Source: Flavobacteriales bacterium UBA7430 (GTDB lineage Bacteria > Bacteroidota > Bacteroidia > Flavobacteriales > UBA7430). Taken from it: DNA of 29,887 bases. Below the pieces are notes generated by a model. It was not told the DNA's origin, ran no database searches, and saw only the letters and a program-made list of their open reading frames with translations. Shown here piece after piece: positions 7,927 through 19,063 of this stretch. Each line of letters begins with the position of its first letter. The first letter of the stretch is position 1. The stretch covers positions 1 to 29,887 of the forward strand of contig DLQO01000017.1 in NCBI GenBank assembly GCA_002478765.1, in the 5' to 3' direction. The position numbers and the translations under genes are program-made.

Positions 7927-7933
7927 CAAACGC

Positions 7934-7980
7934 AGTGGATAAATTTGACTGATTGCAACCACTATAAAAAAGGCTAAAGC
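7934..7980 (+). promoter_or_regulatory. SAM-II riboswitch aptamer upstream of metK
   Basis: The P1 stem is AGTGG (7934-7938) with CCACT (7959-7963). The loop contains AAATTTGACTGATTGCAA, matching the conserved AUUUG...UUGCAA pattern of SAM-II, and the 3' part ends in GGCTAAAGC (7972-7980), carrying the conserved GCUAAAG. TTGC (7953-7956) can pair with GC-AA of that 3' element across the bulged T, as in the H-type pseudoknot of the class. SAM-II binds S-adenosylmethionine and usually blocks translation; its location upstream of SAM synthetase fits feedback control. The class is best known from Alphaproteobacteria, with Bacteroidota examples to my recollection. Confidence 0.88.
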
Positions 7981-8045
7981 AGTATTCTCTACCGCAAAGC
8001 CCAGATCAGACTTTAATTTTTAATACTTCATTTAAAGAATACGAT

Positions 8046-10455: not shown

Positions 10456-11046
10456 TCACACGTCTAAGGAATCTTGGCTCAATAAAAATTCCAATTGAGA
10501 ACAAGCTCTCGTCAATTTTTGGGTCAAATCTTTTCGATCTCTTCTCAAAAAATAAACTTCTGCAGCATTTTCTATACTTTTCTGCATAGCCTCTCTGGGG
10601 TAAGGTTTAGAAATGTACTTGTAAACCTGCCCTTGGTTTATTGAGTTGATGACCGCTGTAATATCGGAGTATCCTGTCACGAGAACGCGAACAGGATCTG
10701 GATACTCGTCAACGATGGATTCTAAAAATTCAACCCCAGTCATTAAATCCATCCTCTGGTCCGTAAGCACTACATGAACATCTTTTGTTTTCATAATTTC
10801 ATACGCTCGATCAGGCGTAGAGGCTATGTAAACATCAAAAATGCGTCTAAATAAACTCTGAAAACTTTCCAACTCATCACGTTCATCATCTAAGTAGAGT
10901 AATCGTATCTTCTCTCTTGGCTCTATAAAATCTTGTCCGTATGATTTTATTTGTTTTTGAATTTCTTCATCCGTGTACACCTTCTTAAACTTTTCTAATT
11001 CCGACTTTAGATGTGAGCCCGTTAGTTTTTTATTTTTATTTTTCAT
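10456..11046 (-). CDS. Stand-alone response-regulator receiver protein
   Basis: This protein has a single receiver domain. From the longest frame (ATG at 11064, 202 residues) the phosphorylation-site residues are all present: acidic pair Asp59-Asp60 (YLDDE), phosphoacceptor Asp102 (LTDQRM), Thr130 (VTGYSD) and Lys153 (ISKPY). Ahead of it is a charged stretch of about 50 residues and behind it a short helical tail of about 30 residues; there is no DNA-binding, HD-GYP or other output domain. I prefer Met7 (11046, MKNKNKKL) because the six residues before it are hydrophobic and atypical. The gene diverges from the four-gene cluster with two histidine kinases, so it is a candidate phosphate acceptor for them. 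The YKYISKPY ending resembles receivers paired with HD-GYP or kinase modules. Confidence 0.85.
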   Translation of the reverse strand: MKNKNKKLTGSHLKSELEKFKKVYTDEEIQKQIKSYGQDFIEPREKIRLLYLDDERDELESFQSLFRRIFDVYIASTPDRAYEIMKTKDVHVVLTDQRMDLMTGVEFLESIVDEYPDPVRVLVTGYSDITAVINSINQGQVYKYISKPYPREAMQKSIENAAEVYFLRRDRKDLTQKLTRACSQLEFLLSQDSLDV

Positions 11047-11179
11047 ATAAATCACCAATAACATTCATGTAAATGTAAATAATTATATATATTTATCCTA
11101 TATTAATATAATATTTCCTATGCTCTCCTGATTAAAGTGCCCGTCACTGTATAAATAATAATTAATCCGAACCAATGTA
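11047..11179. promoter_or_regulatory. Divergent AT-rich control region with a 12-base palindrome
   Basis: The region separates the receiver gene (-) from the acyltransferase-like gene (+), so both promoters should lie here. No TAnnTTTG box is visible on either strand. TATATTAATATA (11099-11110) is a perfect palindrome in very AT-rich surroundings, which makes chance occurrence fairly likely. Confidence 0.3.
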
Positions 11180-11965
11180 ATGTTGCCGACAATTGGTCAA
11201 AAAGACATTGCTAAATTTAGCATAAGAGCTTTAAAAGCTATTGAAGAGCCCCATGTATGCCTGTTATTTCTTAAAAAGCATCACGAAATACTGAAGCATT
11301 ATGGTATCGACATGGTAACCTCTAACAACATCAGTTGGCCCCTCAATCCTAATGTGTACGTACTGGTGGCTGAATCTCTAACGACAGGAGAAATGATGGG
11401 CGGAGTTCGAATTCACATAGCTACCCCAGAATTCCCCTTACCCATAGAAGATGCTGTGGGTTGTATGGACGCAAAAATCGCTCATTTAATAAAGCAATAT
11501 TCAGAATACGGAGGCATTGGTGAAACCTGTGGTCTGTGGTGCTCCTCTTATCATAAAAAGAAGGGCTCAACGGGGCAGAAAATTGGATTGGGCCATCGTT
11601 TAACAAGAGCAGCTGTAGCTGTATCCAATCAGTTTAAGTTAACCACATTAATGGCCATCGTGGGTCAACCTACCCTCCAAAGCTGCCGGAATATAGGCTT
11701 TGTTGAAAGTACTGCATTGGGTGACAACGGTACCTTCCCCTATCCTAAAAAAGACATGGTCGCATGGACTTTGGGTGTTATGAATGCCAAAACACTTGAG
11801 CAAGCTTCGCCCTTGGACAAAAGAATTATTTTAGACTTGAGACAAAACCCTTGTCAATTAAAAAAAGAACAGACCAAAATATCGGAAATAGAAATCAACT
11901 ATCAATTGAATTTGAAACTTGAAGACAAAAATAAATATTTAAATGACAAAAGATTTAATCAATGA
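11180..11965 (+). CDS. GNAT-fold acyltransferase-like protein, autoinducer-synthase-like layout
   Basis: I do not recognise a named family, but this 261-residue protein has GNAT features. A hydrophobic strand pair (VYVLVAES...MMGGVRIHIA, 59-81) leads to the acetyl-CoA loop QKIGLG (133-138), an exact Q-x-x-G-x-G motif, then a helix (HRLTRAAVAVSNQF), a strand (LTTLMAIV) and a QPTLQSCRNIGF segment like GNAT motif B. The order (R-x-I strand before a proline-rich stretch, ETCGLWCSS strand, then acyl-carrier loop) also recalls LuxI/FeeM-type acyl-amino-acid synthases, but the invariant LuxI residues are not clearly present. There is no signal peptide, so it is probably cytoplasmic. It overlaps the next gene by 23 bases and leads a cluster with two histidine kinases. 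Substrate unknown. Confidence 0.6.
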   Translation: MLPTIGQKDIAKFSIRALKAIEEPHVCLLFLKKHHEILKHYGIDMVTSNNISWPLNPNVYVLVAESLTTGEMMGGVRIHIATPEFPLPIEDAVGCMDAKIAHLIKQYSEYGGIGETCGLWCSSYHKKKGSTGQKIGLGHRLTRAAVAVSNQFKLTTLMAIVGQPTLQSCRNIGFVESTALGDNGTFPYPKKDMVAWTLGVMNAKTLEQASPLDKRIILDLRQNPCQLKKEQTKISEIEINYQLNLKLEDKNKYLNDKRFNQ

Positions 11966-13523
11966 TTTTTTAAACTTCCCCGGTTTGGGAAGCATTAAAA
12001 TTATTACTTCTGCAGAAGATTTAAAAAGGTACCATAAAAATACTATGGGTGTTCATAGAAAGATCCTAGCGGCAATACAGGTAACAGAATCGAAACAAAT
12101 AACTGAAATACTAAAGATTGCAAATAAACACCTGCTTTCTATTTATCCAATTAGTACCGGGAATAATTGGGGATATGGCAGTTCAAATCCGGTTAAAAAT
12201 AATTCAATCATCCTAGATCTTTCTAACTTAAATCAAATATTGAATTTTGATGATGAATTAGGTTATGTGACTTTAGAACCTGGTGTTACTCAAAAAATGT
12301 TACACGACTATTTTAAGAAAAAAAAAGTTCGTTATCTGGTCCCAACAACAGGTGCCGGACCTAATTGCAGCATTTTGGGGAATGCTATTGAGCGTGGGTA
12401 CGGAATTACTCCATTTTCTGATCATTTCGCTTCGCTTATTTCTTTAGAAGCTATACTACCAGATGGATCCCTGTACAAATCACCATTAAGTGATTTTAAA
12501 GCGACAGAAGTAGCTGAAATTTTCAAATATGGAATAGGTCCGTATTTAGATGGAATTTTCACTCAATCCAATTTTGGTATTGTAACGAAAATAACCATCG
12601 CTCTTGCCAAAAAAACCGAACACACAGAAATTTTCATGTTTTCTATTAAAGAAGCAAAAGAGCTAAGTAAAACCATTAAAATTATTAGAGAGATAAAACA
12701 GGAACTGGGAAGTATAATTGGTGGTGTTAATCTGATGAATAGAGAGAGAATGAAAGCCATGTTTGGTGATAAGCATCAAAATAAAAGCATCATATGGACT
12801 TGTGTGGGAGGCTTATATGGACCTGTTGAAATAATTAAACAAGCCAAACGAATACTCAAAAGAAAACTAGATAATTTATCTTCATCAGTTGTTTTTCTCA
12901 ATAAAAAAACAATCCGACTGAAAAACAATCTACCTAACTTCATCAACAAATATTTTTATGGAATTCCAAAGGAAACCAAAATTATGGAAAATTTCCTCAA
13001 AATACTTGATGGGGTTCCCTCTGAAATGGCTTTAGCTCTTGCCTACTCGAAATCTAACAAGACGCATAGCTTAAAAGGAAACGCAAATCCGGCGATTGAT
13101 GATTGTGGTTTAATTTGGTTTTCACCTCTTCTTCCTATTCGACCAAATATAGTCGAGGTTTTCGTGAAAAAAATCATTTCGATTTGCAAAAAGCATAAGA
13201 TCGCTCCATTAATTACCCTAACTACGATTTCTAACCATTGCTTTGATTCTACTATACCTATTTTGTATGAAAAAAATAATATCAACGATAAAAAAAATGC
13301 ACAATCTTGTTACGATGAACTTTTCAAGGAATGCCGAAATATGGGCCTTATGCCGTATCGTTTAAATATAGATTCCATGAAAATTTACAATAACGAACAT
13401 GATTTAACATCCGTTAAATTAATTGATACGATTAAAAATGCAATTGATGTAAATCAAGTATTAGCACCAGGAAGGTACAGCTCAACCTTATCCAAAAAAA
13501 GTGATTTCACAAACAATATTTAA
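11943..13523 (+). CDS. FAD-linked oxidoreductase of the VAO/4-cresol dehydrogenase family
   Basis: This 526-residue flavoprotein has an N-terminal PCMH-type FAD-binding domain and a C-terminal cap/substrate domain. The FAD loop PISTGNNWGYGSS (69-81), the LEPGVT segment (111-116), the GNAIERGYGITPFSDHF region (about 146-162) and IGPYLDGIFTQSNFGIVTK (about 197-215) align by eye with 4-cresol dehydrogenase and vanillyl-alcohol oxidase, as does the C-terminal IDVNQVLAPGRYS (about 501-513). Members oxidise para-substituted phenols or related alcohols. I cannot tell whether the residue that binds FAD covalently is kept. The start lies within the acyltransferase-like gene (23-base overlap, different frame). 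The gene is visibly AT-rich: one 60-base block counted by hand had 28% G+C. Substrate unknown. Confidence 0.8.
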   Translation: MTKDLINDFLNFPGLGSIKIITSAEDLKRYHKNTMGVHRKILAAIQVTESKQITEILKIANKHLLSIYPISTGNNWGYGSSNPVKNNSIILDLSNLNQILNFDDELGYVTLEPGVTQKMLHDYFKKKKVRYLVPTTGAGPNCSILGNAIERGYGITPFSDHFASLISLEAILPDGSLYKSPLSDFKATEVAEIFKYGIGPYLDGIFTQSNFGIVTKITIALAKKTEHTEIFMFSIKEAKELSKTIKIIREIKQELGSIIGGVNLMNRERMKAMFGDKHQNKSIIWTCVGGLYGPVEIIKQAKRILKRKLDNLSSSVVFLNKKTIRLKNNLPNFINKYFYGIPKETKIMENFLKILDGVPSEMALALAYSKSNKTHSLKGNANPAIDDCGLIWFSPLLPIRPNIVEVFVKKIISICKKHKIAPLITLTTISNHCFDSTIPILYEKNNINDKKNAQSCYDELFKECRNMGLMPYRLNIDSMKIYNNEHDLTSVKLIDTIKNAIDVNQVLAPGRYSSTLSKKSDFTNNI

Positions 13524-13534
13524 CACGAAAAACC

Positions 13535-15733
13535 ATGCAACATATAGTGAATAAGGGTTTATTACGTGTCTGGAAAAAAAAGACTAAATGTTTAGTGAAA
13601 TTTCATCTTTTATACACCTTAACTTTTGTTTTAATACCGCAAATTTTATTCGCTCAAGAATCCACTGTTATAGATAATCAAACTACTATTTACAAAATAA
13701 AAAACTACATCCTATACGAAGATAAAAGTAACCAAACCCAAATAAACGACCTTCTAATTGACTCTTTAGAGCATTCAGACCAAACAAACTTAAACATAGG
13801 GCTAAGCTACTCTACTTTTTGGGTGAAATTTGAAATAATAAACAACACTTCTGAACCATCTTTATTGTTGGATGTAAAACATCCAACAATAGATATTGTA
13901 GAACTTTATTCTTATTACCCAAACAAAGAAAAAATAATAGCTCAAGAAATTAGTGAATACAAAGACTTTGCAAAAAGAAAACACAATCATCCCAATTATT
14001 TATTTGACATTTATGCGCCAAAAAACTCCTCTGTGACATGCTTCTTAAAAATTAAAAGTAATGAGCAAATTAATGTCCCTATCTACATTGGAACTTCAAT
14101 AACAACTCTAAAATCAATAATAGATAGAGAATTAATAATGGGGATGTACATGGGGATTATTTTAGTAATGCTTTTTTACAATATGTTCGTATACATTACT
14201 TTAAGTGACAAAATATACCTGTACTACGTACTTTACATATTTTTTGTTGGATTAGCTCAATTATCTCTTCACAATTATACCTACAAATTATTTTGGCCAG
14301 AAATTCCAGCGCTAACCAGATACAGCGCCTATTTACTACCCTCTTTAGCGGGCGTCACAGTTACCATTTTTATTCAAAAATTTTTGAAAACTAAAGAGGG
14401 AACTAAAAAAATACACAACATTTTAAATGTTATAATTGGTCTGTTTATAATCTCTGCAGTTCTCCCACTGTTAAAAAAATACCATATTGGTTACCAAGGG
14501 GTTCAACTATCTACAGCTGCAATTTCATTTTTTGGTCTTTATGTCGGCTTTTCCAGACTCCGGGATGGATACAAACCAGCTAAATACTTCATTTTGGGGT
14601 GGAGTGCATTGTTGATTGGAGCTTTAATGTATGTTTTAAAGGACGTTGGGCTTCTTCCTTATAATTTTATCACCGTAAATTCAATGCAAATAGGTTCAGC
14701 AATAGAAGTAGTTCTTCTTTCTTTCGCTCTTGCTGACCGAATAAACATTCTGAAAGAAGAGAAAGAAAGCGCTCAAGCAGAGGAATTGAAACAACGAGAA
14801 GAAAACCAAGAAATTTTACTAAAACAAGCAGATACCTTAAAGTATAAAGTTGAAGAAGCAACTACTGAATTAAGAAACAAAAACAACAAATTAGAAATCG
14901 CTTACCTACGCATTGAAGCTGCAGAAGTTGAGTTAATTCAAAAAGAAAAGATTTCGGCACTTGGTCTTATGGCCGCAGGAACATCTCATGAATTTAACAA
15001 TGCAAACACATCGATTCAACTAGCCGTAGATGTCATCGAACTAAATACCGAGCTTCAAGAAAAATACGACCATAAAATAGACGGAATCTTATCTCAAGCA
15101 AGTAATCTTGAGCCTCAATTAACCGAACTTAAAACATTCAAAAAGGAGATTGAATACAACTCTATAAAAGGAGATATAAAAGATGCTATAAATAAAGCAA
15201 ACAAGGGTTTGAAAAAAATAGCTGTGAATACGAAAAAACTAAAAGATTTTTCGAAAATCGATAATGAAGGTTGGGTAATTACAAATGTAAATGAAGACCT
15301 CATTAACTTATCTGACTTGTGGAAGTCAAATCTTGGAGCCATCAAATTAAACCTTGATCTTAATGAACAGGTTCCTCGATTGAATTGCAATGCACAAATG
15401 ATCAATGATTGCTTTAAAAGTGTTTTGCAAAATTCCATTGAATCTATTAAAGAAAAAAATATCCCTAATAAAGTTGGTGAAATTTCAATTAGAACGGAAT
15501 TAATAGCTGCATGTATTGTCATCTCTTTTGAAGACAATGGAAGCGGGATGACAAAAGAAGTTCAAGAAAGGGCGTTTGATATGTATTTCACAACCAAAGG
15601 GGTCCAAAGGACAGGGACAAGTTTAACAATTGTCCAATCAACTTTAATGGCACACAGTGGACTAGTTGAAATAGATACAAAGATTAATGTCGGAACTACA
15701 ATTAGACTAATCATTCCAATGGAAAAAAAATAA
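13535..15733 (+). CDS. 7TM-DISM receptor histidine kinase with degenerate catalytic boxes
   Basis: This is a 732-residue membrane sensor. The order is a basic N-terminus and hydrophobic signal segment (about 22-41, ending FAQES), an extracytoplasmic all-beta domain of the 7TMR-DISMED2 type (about 50-190), seven membrane helices (about 200-400), a glutamate-rich coiled coil (about 405-480), a histidine phosphoacceptor helix and a C-terminal HATPase domain. DISM receptors are thought to sense carbohydrates or other small ligands. The H-box reads GTSHEFNNANTSI rather than HEINNPL, and the G2 box reads RTGTSLTIVQS rather than GTGLGL. The N-box (LQNSIESI) and G1 box (EDNGSGM) look intact. Weak or altered kinase activity is possible. 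It lies 11 bases after the flavoprotein gene and 11 bases before the second kinase. Confidence 0.88.
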   Translation: MQHIVNKGLLRVWKKKTKCLVKFHLLYTLTFVLIPQILFAQESTVIDNQTTIYKIKNYILYEDKSNQTQINDLLIDSLEHSDQTNLNIGLSYSTFWVKFEIINNTSEPSLLLDVKHPTIDIVELYSYYPNKEKIIAQEISEYKDFAKRKHNHPNYLFDIYAPKNSSVTCFLKIKSNEQINVPIYIGTSITTLKSIIDRELIMGMYMGIILVMLFYNMFVYITLSDKIYLYYVLYIFFVGLAQLSLHNYTYKLFWPEIPALTRYSAYLLPSLAGVTVTIFIQKFLKTKEGTKKIHNILNVIIGLFIISAVLPLLKKYHIGYQGVQLSTAAISFFGLYVGFSRLRDGYKPAKYFILGWSALLIGALMYVLKDVGLLPYNFITVNSMQIGSAIEVVLLSFALADRINILKEEKESAQAEELKQREENQEILLKQADTLKYKVEEATTELRNKNNKLEIAYLRIEAAEVELIQKEKISALGLMAAGTSHEFNNANTSIQLAVDVIELNTELQEKYDHKIDGILSQASNLEPQLTELKTFKKEIEYNSIKGDIKDAINKANKGLKKIAVNTKKLKDFSKIDNEGWVITNVNEDLINLSDLWKSNLGAIKLNLDLNEQVPRLNCNAQMINDCFKSVLQNSIESIKEKNIPNKVGEISIRTELIAACIVISFEDNGSGMTKEVQERAFDMYFTTKGVQRTGTSLTIVQSTLMAHSGLVEIDTKINVGTTIRLIIPMEKK

Positions 15734-15744
15734 CGATAAAAATT

Positions 15745-16662
15745 ATGTCACTGACCAATAAAAAAAATCATTCCACACAAAAAAGTAAAAGTCTTAAAAG
15801 AATCATTCAAAGACTTAAGTCTGAAAATTCCAAATTGCACCTTCAGATACTTTCTTTGAAAGAAAAAAATTCTAACTCAGATCTAGAATATGTTTATCAT
15901 GAAAAAGCATCTGAAATAGCCCATGAAATTAATAACCCCATTAACTTAGTGAGTAACTCCATAAGTAACCTGGAAATAAACATACAGTACATCATCAAAT
16001 TAACGTATCTGTATCAAGAACTTAAGAACGATAAAAGTGGAACCACTCTCGAAGATGTCATCAGGTTTGAAGAAGAAACAAACATCAAGTTAACGGTCAA
16101 GGAATTAACGAAATCAGTCGACCGAATTAGAAAAGGAATCAGCAGGGTTCACGAAGTCTCAGAGAACTTAGCATTCATGGGTAAATCGGGGGGGAAATTA
16201 CGATTGAAAACCGATATTAATGAAAATATCAAAAGCACACTTACACTAATCGACGAAGTATTTGACGAAAATATTAAGCTGAGAACTCAATTCGCGGATC
16301 TTCCAATATTGAAAACTGTGAGAGGTAAACTCAACCAAGTTTTTACAAATCTCATTGAAAATGCAATTGAGGCAATCCAAGAAAAACCCCTTGTTAAAAA
16401 CAACTATTTGTCAATAACTACAAGGGCTGATAATAATTACATCGTCGTAGAAATTGAAGATAGTGGTATCGGAATGACCCCCGAAACTAAAAAAAGATTG
16501 TTTGAGAAGTTTTACACAACAAAGAGCCCTGAAAAAGGAACCGGTTTGGGCATGTCCATATCAAAGCAAATTATTGAGGAACACAATGGGGTTCTTGAGG
16601 TAGATTCTACGTTTGGCCAAGGAACTAAATTAACGATCAGGCTGCCTATCACACAACTCTAA
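15745..16662 (+). CDS. Soluble histidine kinase with canonical boxes
   Basis: This 305-residue kinase has no signal peptide or membrane helix. A basic coiled-coil stretch (about 5-40) precedes the H-box SEIAHEINNPIN (phosphoacceptor near residue 60). A long helical hairpin follows, then the HATPase domain with N-box NLIENAIEAI (about 200), G1 box EDSGIGM (about 241), the F-box region LFEKFYTTK and G2 box GTGLGMSIS (about 270). Unlike its neighbour upstream, all boxes are canonical. Its C-terminal half resembles that neighbour, which suggests duplication or co-operation, for example phosphorylating in trans or forming mixed dimers. No PAS or GAF sensor domain is visible, so its input probably comes from a partner protein. 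It ends 3 bases before convergent hemW, with no obvious terminator between. Confidence 0.9.
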   Translation: MSLTNKKNHSTQKSKSLKRIIQRLKSENSKLHLQILSLKEKNSNSDLEYVYHEKASEIAHEINNPINLVSNSISNLEINIQYIIKLTYLYQELKNDKSGTTLEDVIRFEEETNIKLTVKELTKSVDRIRKGISRVHEVSENLAFMGKSGGKLRLKTDINENIKSTLTLIDEVFDENIKLRTQFADLPILKTVRGKLNQVFTNLIENAIEAIQEKPLVKNNYLSITTRADNNYIVVEIEDSGIGMTPETKKRLFEKFYTTKSPEKGTGLGMSISKQIIEEHNGVLEVDSTFGQGTKLTIRLPITQL

Positions 16663-16665
16663 ATG

Positions 16666-17796
16666 TTAATCCAATAAAAATAAGTCTGCCGAAATTCGAT
16701 CTGCAAGCAACTTTCCGTCATCAGAAAGTGTGAAGACACCTTTATCTTCTGTTACGAGGCCATTTTGAATATGTTTTTGGATTTCAGACTTAAACCCATC
16801 ATTGATTGTTTTTGAGAACTCGGCTTCCATTTGACTGACATGACATCCCCACTTAGTCCTCAGAGAAGTCATCACGTATTCATTATAACGATCACGTTCG
16901 CTCAATACTTCCAATTCTAGTGGGACTATCCCGGCCGATAATGATTTTATATATTTTGTGTTATTAGAAACATTCCACAACCTTGAGTTTCCTATAAAAG
17001 AATGCGCTGAAGGGCCTAATCCTAAATAATTATCTTTGCTCCAATACGCGCTATTATGGCGACTGTAGGCATTTGATTTACAGAAATTAGAAATTTCATA
17101 TTGCTCGTAACCATTTTCGGACATCTCTCTCATCAATATCTCAAATTGTCTTGCACTCTGTTCTTCAGAAAGAGGAGCCATTTTTTTCGATTTGATTTGT
17201 TGATGTAACAATGTTTTTTCCTCAACAGTTAATGCATAAGAGGATAAATGAGGTATGTTAAGGTCAAAACTTTTGTGTAAATTTTGAATCCAAGCTCCAT
17301 CCGTCATCCCAGGGGTTCCATATATCAAATCAATCGTAAGATTTTCAAACCCCGCGTCTTGAACCATGACAATGGACTGTATGGCGTTTTCTGCCGTATG
17401 AGCTCTATTCATGAACTTCAAATCATCATCTCTAAAAGACTGAACTCCAATGCTTAATCTATTGATGGGACTTTCTTTAATTTCAGCAATTTTTTCGAAA
17501 GTAAGATCATCGGGATTCGCTTCTAAAGTGATTTCTGCTCGCTCAGAAATATTGAAACTGTCAGAAAGTTTCTCAAAAATGATTTTTAACTCATCCTTTG
17601 TCAATAAAGAAGGGGTTCCACCTCCAAAATAGATGGTCGAGACTTCTTGTCCAGAAAAAACAACTTTACGTAAATCTATTTCCATGATAAGAGCATCCAT
17701 AAACTCAGCTTTCATCTTCAAAGAAGTTGAAAAATGAAAATCGCAATAAGTACAAGCCTTTTTGCAAAACGGGATGTGTATGTAAATTCCAGCCAT
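16666..17796 (-). CDS. hemW: Radical SAM heme chaperone HemW
   Basis: HemW resembles the coproporphyrinogen dehydrogenase HemN but is thought to bind and deliver heme rather than oxidise coproporphyrinogen. The 376 residues begin MAGIYIHIPFCKKACTYCDF, with the cluster motif Cys11-x3-Cys15-x2-Cys18 followed by Asp-Phe. HemN proper has an N-terminal extension and CxxxCxxCxC, which is absent here. Later landmarks are the YFGGGTPSLL segment (about 56-65), LSIGVQSF (about 134) and a HemN C-terminal domain. The start overlaps the stop of the upstream sensor kinase gene (TAATG), so the two are co-transcribed. Confidence 0.93.
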   Translation of the reverse strand: MAGIYIHIPFCKKACTYCDFHFSTSLKMKAEFMDALIMEIDLRKVVFSGQEVSTIYFGGGTPSLLTKDELKIIFEKLSDSFNISERAEITLEANPDDLTFEKIAEIKESPINRLSIGVQSFRDDDLKFMNRAHTAENAIQSIVMVQDAGFENLTIDLIYGTPGMTDGAWIQNLHKSFDLNIPHLSSYALTVEEKTLLHQQIKSKKMAPLSEEQSARQFEILMREMSENGYEQYEISNFCKSNAYSRHNSAYWSKDNYLGLGPSAHSFIGNSRLWNVSNNTKYIKSLSAGIVPLELEVLSERDRYNEYVMTSLRTKWGCHVSQMEAEFSKTINDGFKSEIQKHIQNGLVTEDKGVFTLSDDGKLLADRISADLFLLD

Positions 17797-18950
17797 TAGC
17801 CTTTGGAGAGACTTATTCTAAATGTCGTTCCTTTTTCGAGTTCGGATTGCAAAACATACACCTCACCTTTGTGATAGTCTTCAACAATTCTTTTCACCAA
17901 AGAAAGCCCCAAACCCCAACCGCGATGCTTGGTTGTAAACCCTGGTTCAAAAACAGTATTTAGATGTCCTGTTTTTATACCCCTTCCGGTATCTGAAATA
18001 TCTACGTACACCTTCTTTTCCTTACTTGAAACTCGTAGACTAATTTCTCCTTTACCTTGAAGCGCATCAATAGCATTTCGCATGATATTTTCAACAACCC
18101 AACCAAAAAGCTGTGTGTTTAGTGCACACATTAACTCTGATTCATAAACCTCTAATTTGAACTTTATTTTCTCAGAACTTCGATCTTTCATGTAGTAAAA
18201 AGAACGTTCTACAACCTTGTTGAGATCCTTTAAATGAAGTTCTGGCTGAGAACCTATCTTTGAAAAGCGTTCTGTAATCGTTTGTAATCTGTAGATGTCT
18301 TTATTCATCTCAGAGACAATTTCTTCATTTTGACTCTGAGCTTTGAGCAATGTAATCCAACCCATTAAAGATGATAGTGGAGTACCTATTTGATGTGCTG
18401 TTTCACGAGCCATCCCTGCCCAAACCTTATTTTGTTCTGACTTTCTTGTAGCACTGAAAGCATAGTACGCAATCATAACAAATAAGCTTACAACAATTAA
18501 AATAACGTATGGGAAATACTTCAGTCTGGTAAGTAAAATAGAGTCTTTGTAATAAATTTTATTGTTTTGTCCGTCAGCATACTCAAAAATGATTGGTTCA
18601 TGCGTAGCTTGCATCAATCGGAGCTGTTTCTTTAAGTATCCTTTACTTTTGGCTTTCTTTTCAGGAAAGTTTTTGTGGTAAAGAATTTCACCATGCTCGT
18701 CGGTAAGTATTACGGGAATGGTATTGTTGTGGTTGATCACCTCAAACACGAAACTTATGTCCTCATTAAGGTTGTCAATATCTGTAGTTTGCTCGGTAGC
18801 TTTTGCCCAAATTTTGACTTTGGTTCTCTCTTCTCTACTCAAGTCATCCACCAATCGATTGGTGAAAAAAAACACTGCCACACCGATAATCAGTGCGATT
18901 AGCATTAACAATTGCTTACTTAATCTCTTTATTTGAAAATTAGAAATCAT
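17796..18950 (-). CDS. Two-transmembrane sensor histidine kinase
   Basis: In numbering from the upstream ATG at 18971 (391 residues), it has a first membrane helix at 21-39, a periplasmic part of about 110 residues, a second helix at 153-172, an H-box ETAHQIGTPLSSL (phosphoacceptor His193), an HATPase N-box near residue 280 (ENIMRNAIDAL), a DTGRGI G1 box and a GWGLGLSLVKRI G2 box. The motif AHQIGTPLSSLMGW marks a kinase subfamily common in Flavobacteriales whose stimulus is not known to me. There is no HAMP or PAS domain. I chose Met8 (18950, MISNFQIKRLSKQ) as start because it gives a short basic N-terminus just ahead of the membrane helix. No response regulator is adjacent. The stop overlaps the start of hemW. 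Confidence 0.9.
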   Translation of the reverse strand: MISNFQIKRLSKQLLMLIALIIGVAVFFFTNRLVDDLSREERTKVKIWAKATEQTTDIDNLNEDISFVFEVINHNNTIPVILTDEHGEILYHKNFPEKKAKSKGYLKKQLRLMQATHEPIIFEYADGQNNKIYYKDSILLTRLKYFPYVILIVVSLFVMIAYYAFSATRKSEQNKVWAGMARETAHQIGTPLSSLMGWITLLKAQSQNEEIVSEMNKDIYRLQTITERFSKIGSQPELHLKDLNKVVERSFYYMKDRSSEKIKFKLEVYESELMCALNTQLFGWVVENIMRNAIDALQGKGEISLRVSSKEKKVYVDISDTGRGIKTGHLNTVFEPGFTTKHRGWGLGLSLVKRIVEDYHKGEVYVLQSELEKGTTFRISLSKG

Positions 18951-19063
18951 ATTTAAAAAAACGAAATGCACAGAACATTATTGCAAGCCATATCTGTTAT
19001 GTATGATGAGCTGTAAACAAGCTTACCTCTAATGTTTTGATGTGAAAATACTAAAATTCTCAA

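What the first reader, a model, noticed from the sequence alone, without database searches (positions are those of the whole stretch)
10456..16662. Candidate self-contained chemical signalling system: two small-molecule enzymes, two kinases and a receiver
Four plus-strand genes, with only 11 bases or an overlap between them, encode a GNAT-like acyltransferase, a VAO-type flavoprotein, a 7TM-DISM receptor kinase and a soluble kinase; a stand-alone receiver diverges from them. The packing implies one transcript. Biosynthetic enzymes next to sensors suggest that the cluster makes a small molecule and senses it or its precursor. I do not recall this combination from Bacteroidota. The grouping is seen in the sequence; the role is inference.
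Basis: partly seen in the sequence, partly recalled or inferred. Interest (0 to 1): 0.75.

Follow-up and report, generated by a model that had tools for sequence, protein, structure and literature searches.

The report
Fatty amino-acid signal operon with receptor
This bacterium keeps the genes that probably make a fatty-acid-tagged amino acid directly beside genes for a membrane receptor and signalling proteins, and many relatives across the same large group keep the same pairing, which makes these lipids a testable candidate for a bacterial chemical signal.

The parts
10456..11064 (-). stand-alone receiver (REC), 202 aa, divergent from the operon; phospho-acceptor and switch residues intact
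   Evidence: PF00072 E 6e-15; [TS]DQRM phospho-acceptor motif in at least 56 of 65 aligned operon receivers, window included (the five commonest variants were printed); 81-82% identical in G001 and G002
11065..11116 (.). conserved block between receiver and GNAT, likely control region
   Evidence: nearly invariant in three congeneric genomes, unlike the rest of the gap; function inferred
11180..11965 (+). N-acyl amino acid synthase-like GNAT (FeeM fold), 261 aa
11943..13523 (+). 4-phenol oxidoreductase (VAO/PCMH subfamily) flavoprotein, 526 aa
13535..15733 (+). 7TMR-DISM receptor with a degenerate histidine-kinase domain, 732 aa
   Evidence: PF07695 E 2e-54, PF07696 E 8e-24; N-box SVLQNS and G2 box RTGTSL, where the other 66 operon DISM kinases outside the genus have GTGLGL, GTGLGM or (one) GMGLGL
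15745..16662 (+). soluble histidine kinase HK2, 305 aa, canonical H, N, G1 and G2 boxes
   Evidence: PF02518 E 8e-26; HEINNP, NLIENA, DSGIGM, GTGLGM

Best explanation
The operon makes an N-acyl amino acid and carries a dedicated receptor circuit for it or for its precursor. Step 1 (inferred from fold): the GNAT joins a fatty acyl group to the amino group of an aromatic amino acid, most likely tyrosine. Step 2 (inferred from active site and gene position): the flavoprotein binds the phenol of N-acyl-tyrosine and oxidises the benzylic carbon through a p-quinone methide, giving N-acyl-dehydrotyrosine or a hydroxylated form. In most related operons the tailoring enzyme is instead a ThiF cyclase, with or without a fused FMN desaturase, that would make an N-acyl oxazolone. 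Step 3 (inferred): the lipid reaches the DISM receptor, which has lost the ATP-lid glycines and so acts as a sensing scaffold that controls the canonical soluble kinase beside it. Step 4 (inferred): phosphate passes to the stand-alone receiver and from there to targets outside the operon. Shown here: gene content, the class-wide linkage of synthase, tailoring enzyme, receptor and receiver, the conserved active-site residues, and the kinase-motif loss.
For: FeeM is the top solved structure for the GNAT model. Linkage: DISM within two genes downstream in 66 of 71 loci, receiver within five genes in 62, ThiF enzyme in 62; background 0 of 370. GNAT and ThiF enzyme co-occur in 69 genomes (78 have the GNAT, 71 the ThiF enzyme, of 396), within 212 bases in 65. 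The ThiF-nitroreductase partner is the TrzS/Rv1355c family (E 3.8e-247), shown to make N-acyl oxazolones in PMC12856293 (abstract; sections 4, 7, 8). The tailoring enzyme is exchanged while synthase and receptor stay: a methyltransferase in 5 loci needs 5 changes on the synthase tree (at least 3 forced), the VAO 1. In G001 a 4-phenol oxidase only 28% identical to the window's stands in the VAO's place, although G001's GNAT is 83% identical, while G002 keeps an 85% identical one; the window's and G001's types both keep the phenolate triad (G002's own copy was not aligned).
Confidence: 0.5

Rival explanations
1. The kinases sense an unrelated outside cue (for instance a carbohydrate or membrane stress) and switch on production of an N-acyl amino acid lipid that works as an antimicrobial, surfactant or membrane lipid. 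The product is an output, not the signal.
For: Stieleriacines, N-acylated tyrosines, alter species composition in marine biofilms (PMC7293339, title and start of abstract in the listing). DISMED2 is recalled to be a carbohydrate-binding-like domain. No regulator with an output domain is in the operon.
Against: Synthase and receptor stay together through repeated changes of the tailoring enzyme, as expected of a matched pair, though co-regulation would also do this.
Confidence: 0.32
2. A catabolic or detoxifying unit for environmental phenols: the VAO oxidises an algal or lignin phenol, the GNAT acylates an amine, and the kinases sense the phenol.
For: The VAO belongs to the 4-phenol oxidoreductases, many of which act on lignin phenols (titles and abstracts in the listing).
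Against: In 62 of 71 related loci the GNAT's partner is a ThiF or ThiF-desaturase enzyme of a biosynthetic family, the GNAT has the N-acyl amino acid synthase fold, and none of the other genes scanned between 8046 and 19996 looks like phenol degradation (the rest of the window was not scanned for domains).
Confidence: 0.1
3. The genes are merely neighbours without a shared function.
For: The VAO was found in this place only in one genus.
Against: Class-wide linkage of GNAT, DISM and receiver; overlap and 11-base gaps; retention between the same flanking genes in G001 and, up to a contig end, in G002.
Confidence: 0.04

Closest known systems
trzAS / tyzACB N-acyl oxazolone clusters of actinobacteria (PMC12856293, PMC10404671) and OxzAB of Pseudoalteromonas (named in those papers)
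   Same: FeeM-type N-acyl amino acid synthase beside an aromatic-lipid tailoring enzyme; the related Bacteroidia loci carry the same ThiF-desaturase family
   Different: The window genome has no such ThiF enzyme or fusion but a 4-phenol oxidase; it and its relatives add a dedicated DISM receptor kinase and receivers. 'Histidine kinase' and 'two-component' occur 0 times in the main texts of these two papers and of PMC12479983
[quoted passage not shown]
   Same: N-acyl (dehydro)tyrosine products; synthase with a proposed desaturase
   Different: There a nitroreductase-family protein is proposed to desaturate (section 6); here a VAO-type enzyme is proposed, and a receptor circuit is attached
LuxI-type acyl-homoserine lactone synthases with a cognate receptor
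   Same: Related GNAT fold (TofI 14.6, LasI 14.5, BjaI 13.4); synthase next to receptor
   Different: No Autoind_synth Pfam hit; membrane DISM kinase instead of LuxR
RetS/GacS kinase pair of Pseudomonas (recalled; only search listings seen)
   Same: DISM receptor controlling another kinase
   Different: Here receptor and supposed partner lie in one operon and the receptor's ATP lid is degenerate; interaction untested
VAO, eugenol oxidase and p-cresol methylhydroxylase

Membership tests
N-acyl amino acid synthase (FeeM type) | FeeM-like GNAT fold | tested here: met
N-acyl amino acid synthase (FeeM type) | acyl transfer to an amino acid | not testable with these tools
   needs an assay
LuxI acyl-homoserine lactone synthase | sequence membership of Pfam Autoind_synth | tested here: not met
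   no Pfam family at E 0.01
4-phenol oxidoreductase (VAO/PCMH subfamily) | fold and FAD-binding domain | tested here: met
4-phenol oxidoreductase (VAO/PCMH subfamily) | phenolate-binding Tyr + Tyr-Arg (P-cluster) | tested here: met
   Y78, Y472, R473 align with PCMH 95, 473, 474 and are invariant in 24 sequences; role from passages of PMC11148156, PMC5646868, PMC12909556
4-phenol oxidoreductase (VAO/PCMH subfamily) | covalent flavin anchor | not tested
   anchor residue not mapped
N-acyl oxazolone cluster (trz/tyz/oxz) | ThiF cyclase of this family, alone or fused to an FMN desaturase, in the window's genome | tested here: not met
   no Rv1355c-family match over the cut-off in G000-G002, only weak partial ones; none in G000 at 1e-60. 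G000 is rated 86% complete. Met in 62 of 71 related loci
7TMR-DISM receptor histidine kinase | DISMED2 + 7TM domains | tested here: met
   PF07696 and PF07695 over their cut-offs
7TMR-DISM receptor histidine kinase | intact glycine-rich ATP lid (G2 box) in the DISM gene's own kinase domain | tested here: not met
   RTGTSL in G000, KTGVSL in G001, also degenerate in G003 (SGTSLTI); glycine-rich in the 66 DISM kinases outside the genus
Quorum-sensing or autocrine signalling system | synthase and candidate receptor co-located | tested here: met
   66 of 71 loci outside the genus
Quorum-sensing or autocrine signalling system | product released and sensed by the receptor | not testable with these tools
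   needs deletion and feeding experiments
Quorum-sensing or autocrine signalling system | output regulator in the operon | tested here: not met
   the only regulator is a receiver without a Pfam output domain

The most novel reading that the evidence does not exclude
Across Bacteroidia there is a so far undescribed class of cell-cell signalling in which the signals are N-acyl oxazolones or N-acyl dehydro-amino acids and the receptors are 7TMR-DISM kinases. Exchanging the tailoring enzyme (ThiF cyclase, cyclase-desaturase fusion, methyltransferases, 4-phenol oxidase) creates chemical dialects. In the window's lineage a flavoprotein phenol oxidase has replaced the oxazolone enzymes, and the receptor has become a pseudokinase that steers a separate kinase.
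Probability: 0.35. Interest if true: 0.9.

Novelty: new variant of a known kind. Interest (0 to 1): 0.72.

Why it matters
The role of bacterial N-acyl oxazolones is called a major unresolved question by those who worked out their biosynthesis (PMC12856293, section 8). A class-wide operon that ties the same enzymes to a dedicated membrane receptor kinase gives that question a direct test: delete the synthase, watch the receptor's targets, add the product back. It would also give Bacteroidota, where self-made small-molecule signals with matched receptors are poorly known (recalled), a candidate system present in about a fifth of the sampled class genomes (78 of 396, own genome included). The exchange of tailoring enzymes within a fixed synthase-receptor frame would show how signals diversify.

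Tried and rejected
Rejected: (1) the operon as a one-off combination; the core is widespread. (2) LuxI-type AHL synthesis as the first choice; no Autoind_synth hit and FeeM ranks first, although AHL synthases are close behind. (3) HK3 (17796-18971) as part of the system: it stays beside HemW in G008 and G009, where in the stretches read GNAT and VAO gave no match and DISM or HK2 queries matched only HK3 itself. (4) HK2 as a worn-down REC-kinase: its kinase core is 33.6% identical on average to the operon DISM kinases and 17.1% to the REC-kinases. The tree does not settle whether it arose by duplication of the DISM kinase (supports 0.70 and 0.86), so I do not claim that.

Led nowhere: sigma-70-type promoters and terminators were no more frequent than in shuffles; the Bacteroidota-type motif TANNTTTG (recalled) has no hit in the receiver-GNAT gap. 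Papers: searches (all 10 allowed). No title or abstract start that was listed reports this operon, a histidine kinase tied to oxazolone genes, or a VAO acting on N-acyl tyrosine; several searches listed only part of their hits (20 of 36, 20 of 238, 20 of 727, 10 of 12). The library is open-licence only; the Pseudoalteromonas OxzAB paper was not read.

Limits of counts: of the 77 genomes other than G000 that matched, I fetched neighbourhoods for 60; the other 17 were left out, mostly as congeners of ones taken or as contig-end hits. With 13 that makes 73; my ORF caller found no GNAT ORF in L105 and L121, so 71 were counted. L033, L079, L091 and L102 are cut by contig ends and count as misses where a gene is not seen. 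The gene labels come from small profiles built from the loci, which are among the 71. L126 (G339) is a weak relative (E 2.5e-18, very long branch) and has no DISM. The co-occurrence test treats related genomes as independent.

Full report
Observation. Pfam supports all but the GNAT, which has no Pfam hit at E 0.01, no NCBIfam hit at 0.001 and no sequence relative in the PDB at E 1. Upstream lie metK and an RlmG-like gene, downstream HemW (-), kinase HK3 (-) and a pseudouridine synthase. The block sits between the same flanks in the congeneric G001; in G002, up to a contig end inside the DISM gene, the upstream side is the same.

A class-wide operon. I read 73 neighbourhoods outside the genus and counted 71, as my ORF caller found no GNAT in two. 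Downstream on the same strand, within two genes, comes a DISM kinase in 66; within five genes there is a receiver of the window's type in 62, a REC-kinase hybrid on the same strand in 59, and a ThiF-domain enzyme in 62 (34 fused to a nitroreductase-type domain, 28 without it). The ThiF gene usually stands before the GNAT, but after it in five loci (L068, L069, L077, L078, L119). A VAO was in 0. In the same stretches, more than five genes from the GNAT, 0 of 370 genes were long DISM kinases. A search for the ThiF-desaturase family in the same 396 genomes found 71; 69 of them also have the GNAT, in 65 within 212 bases. Of the other four, two (G270, G197) have the pieces on different contigs with one at a contig end, one (G484) has a tandem second GNAT in between, and one (G344) is truly apart. 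Two ThiF genomes (G327, G404) have no GNAT match, and nine GNAT genomes, G000 among them, no ThiF match at 1e-60.

What the usual partner does. The fused enzyme matches NF005901, the Rv1355c family, over nearly its whole length (E 3.8e-247). PMC12856293 (abstract; sections 4, 7 and 8 read) shows that this enzyme, TrzS, turns N-acyl-tryptophan from an acyltransferase, TrzA, into an N-acyl oxazolone: ATP-dependent cyclisation by the ThiF part, O2-dependent desaturation by the FMN part. PMC10404671 (abstract and section 5) shows the same for tyrosine with separate enzymes and reports FeeM and BjaI as close structures of its acyltransferase, as found here. D163, D165, R174, K186 and D233 of the ThiF part, which I take for the catalytic set by recalled analogy with ThiF and MoeB, are kept in 63 of 63 sequences. 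The authors call the role of oxazolones a major unresolved question and note the likeness to AHLs (section 8). 'Histidine kinase' and 'two-component' occur 0 times in the main texts of three papers on this chemistry.

Exchanges around a fixed pair. In five loci (L090, L096, L102, L106, L108) the ThiF enzyme is missing and a methyltransferase with a UbiE-type domain follows the GNAT (two of the five scanned with Pfam); the five are homologous to each other (31-42% identity). In one more (L100) an ICMT-like methyltransferase stands there. None of these six genomes has a ThiF-family match at 1e-60. On the synthase tree the methyltransferase label needs 5 changes (at least 3 forced by well supported branches), the fused and unfused ThiF types need 15 and 14 (at least 9 and 10), and the VAO group is one supported clade of 3 rows (100/100), in a supported set of 26 with 23 ThiF-type rows. 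Synthase and DISM receptor thus mostly stay while the chemistry changes. This fits a signal with dialects; it also fits a regulated, diversifying natural product.

The kinases. The 66 DISM kinases of the other operons have an HE[ILV]NNP phosphoacceptor box and a glycine-rich ATP lid (GTGLGL or GTGLGM in 65, GMGLGL in one). The window and G001 have HEFNNA, N-box SVLQNS and RTGTSL or KTGVSL; the sister genus G003, whose contig starts inside the DISM gene, is degenerate too (SGTSLTI). HK2 keeps HEINNP, NLIENA, DSGIGM and GTGLGM in G000 and G001, and the same boxes in G003. The likely reading is a receptor pseudokinase that controls a separate kinase; no interaction was tested. The receiver keeps its phospho-acceptor. 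The usual REC-kinase and third receiver do not appear in the G001 block, and in the window HK2 is followed by HemW.

History. G003 carries DISM and HK2 beside HemW, cut by a contig end; no VAO match was found in that genome, but it is in about 220 contigs, so this says little. In G008 only the end of the receiver remains beside HemW (residues 121-202; 111-202 with three stops inside); GNAT, VAO and DISM gave no match in the 14 kb read and HK2 matched only HK3, which looks like loss; that genome is rated 71% complete.

Verdict. A real, conserved operon that couples N-acyl amino acid biosynthesis to a receptor kinase; the window is a divergent variant. Biosynthesis type: likely. Receptor senses product: plausible, untested. 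I rate it a new variant of a known kind: the enzymes are known; the receptor-linked operon and the flavoprotein exchange I did not find in print (searches listed under tried and rejected).

Noticed in passing
window 7929-7987 (+): SAM-II riboswitch (Rfam RF01726, 66.3 bits) directly upstream of metK.
   Followed up: no
window 11040-11116: A block at the start of the receiver gene and in the adjoining gap is nearly invariant in three congeneric genomes although the rest of the gap diverges; possible shared control region. The receiver's start may be six codons too early (second Met at residue 7).
   Followed up: partly
L143 5924-6169 (G008): Receiver remnant (residues 121-202, 73% identical) beside HemW with GNAT, VAO and DISM not matched in the 14 kb read: apparent loss of the operon; the RlmG-like, RluB-like and two other matches also break into several pieces there.
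   Followed up: partly
L072 (G484): Two tandem copies of the GNAT between the ThiF-desaturase fusion and the DISM kinase.
   Followed up: no
G000:C61:12609-15326: The genome's two other 7TMR-DISM matches lie close together on another contig.
   Followed up: no
L144 4621-5886 (G003:C143): Two receivers related to the window's (34% and 41% identity) side by side in the sister genus, on another contig than HemW; their partners were not identified.
   Followed up: no
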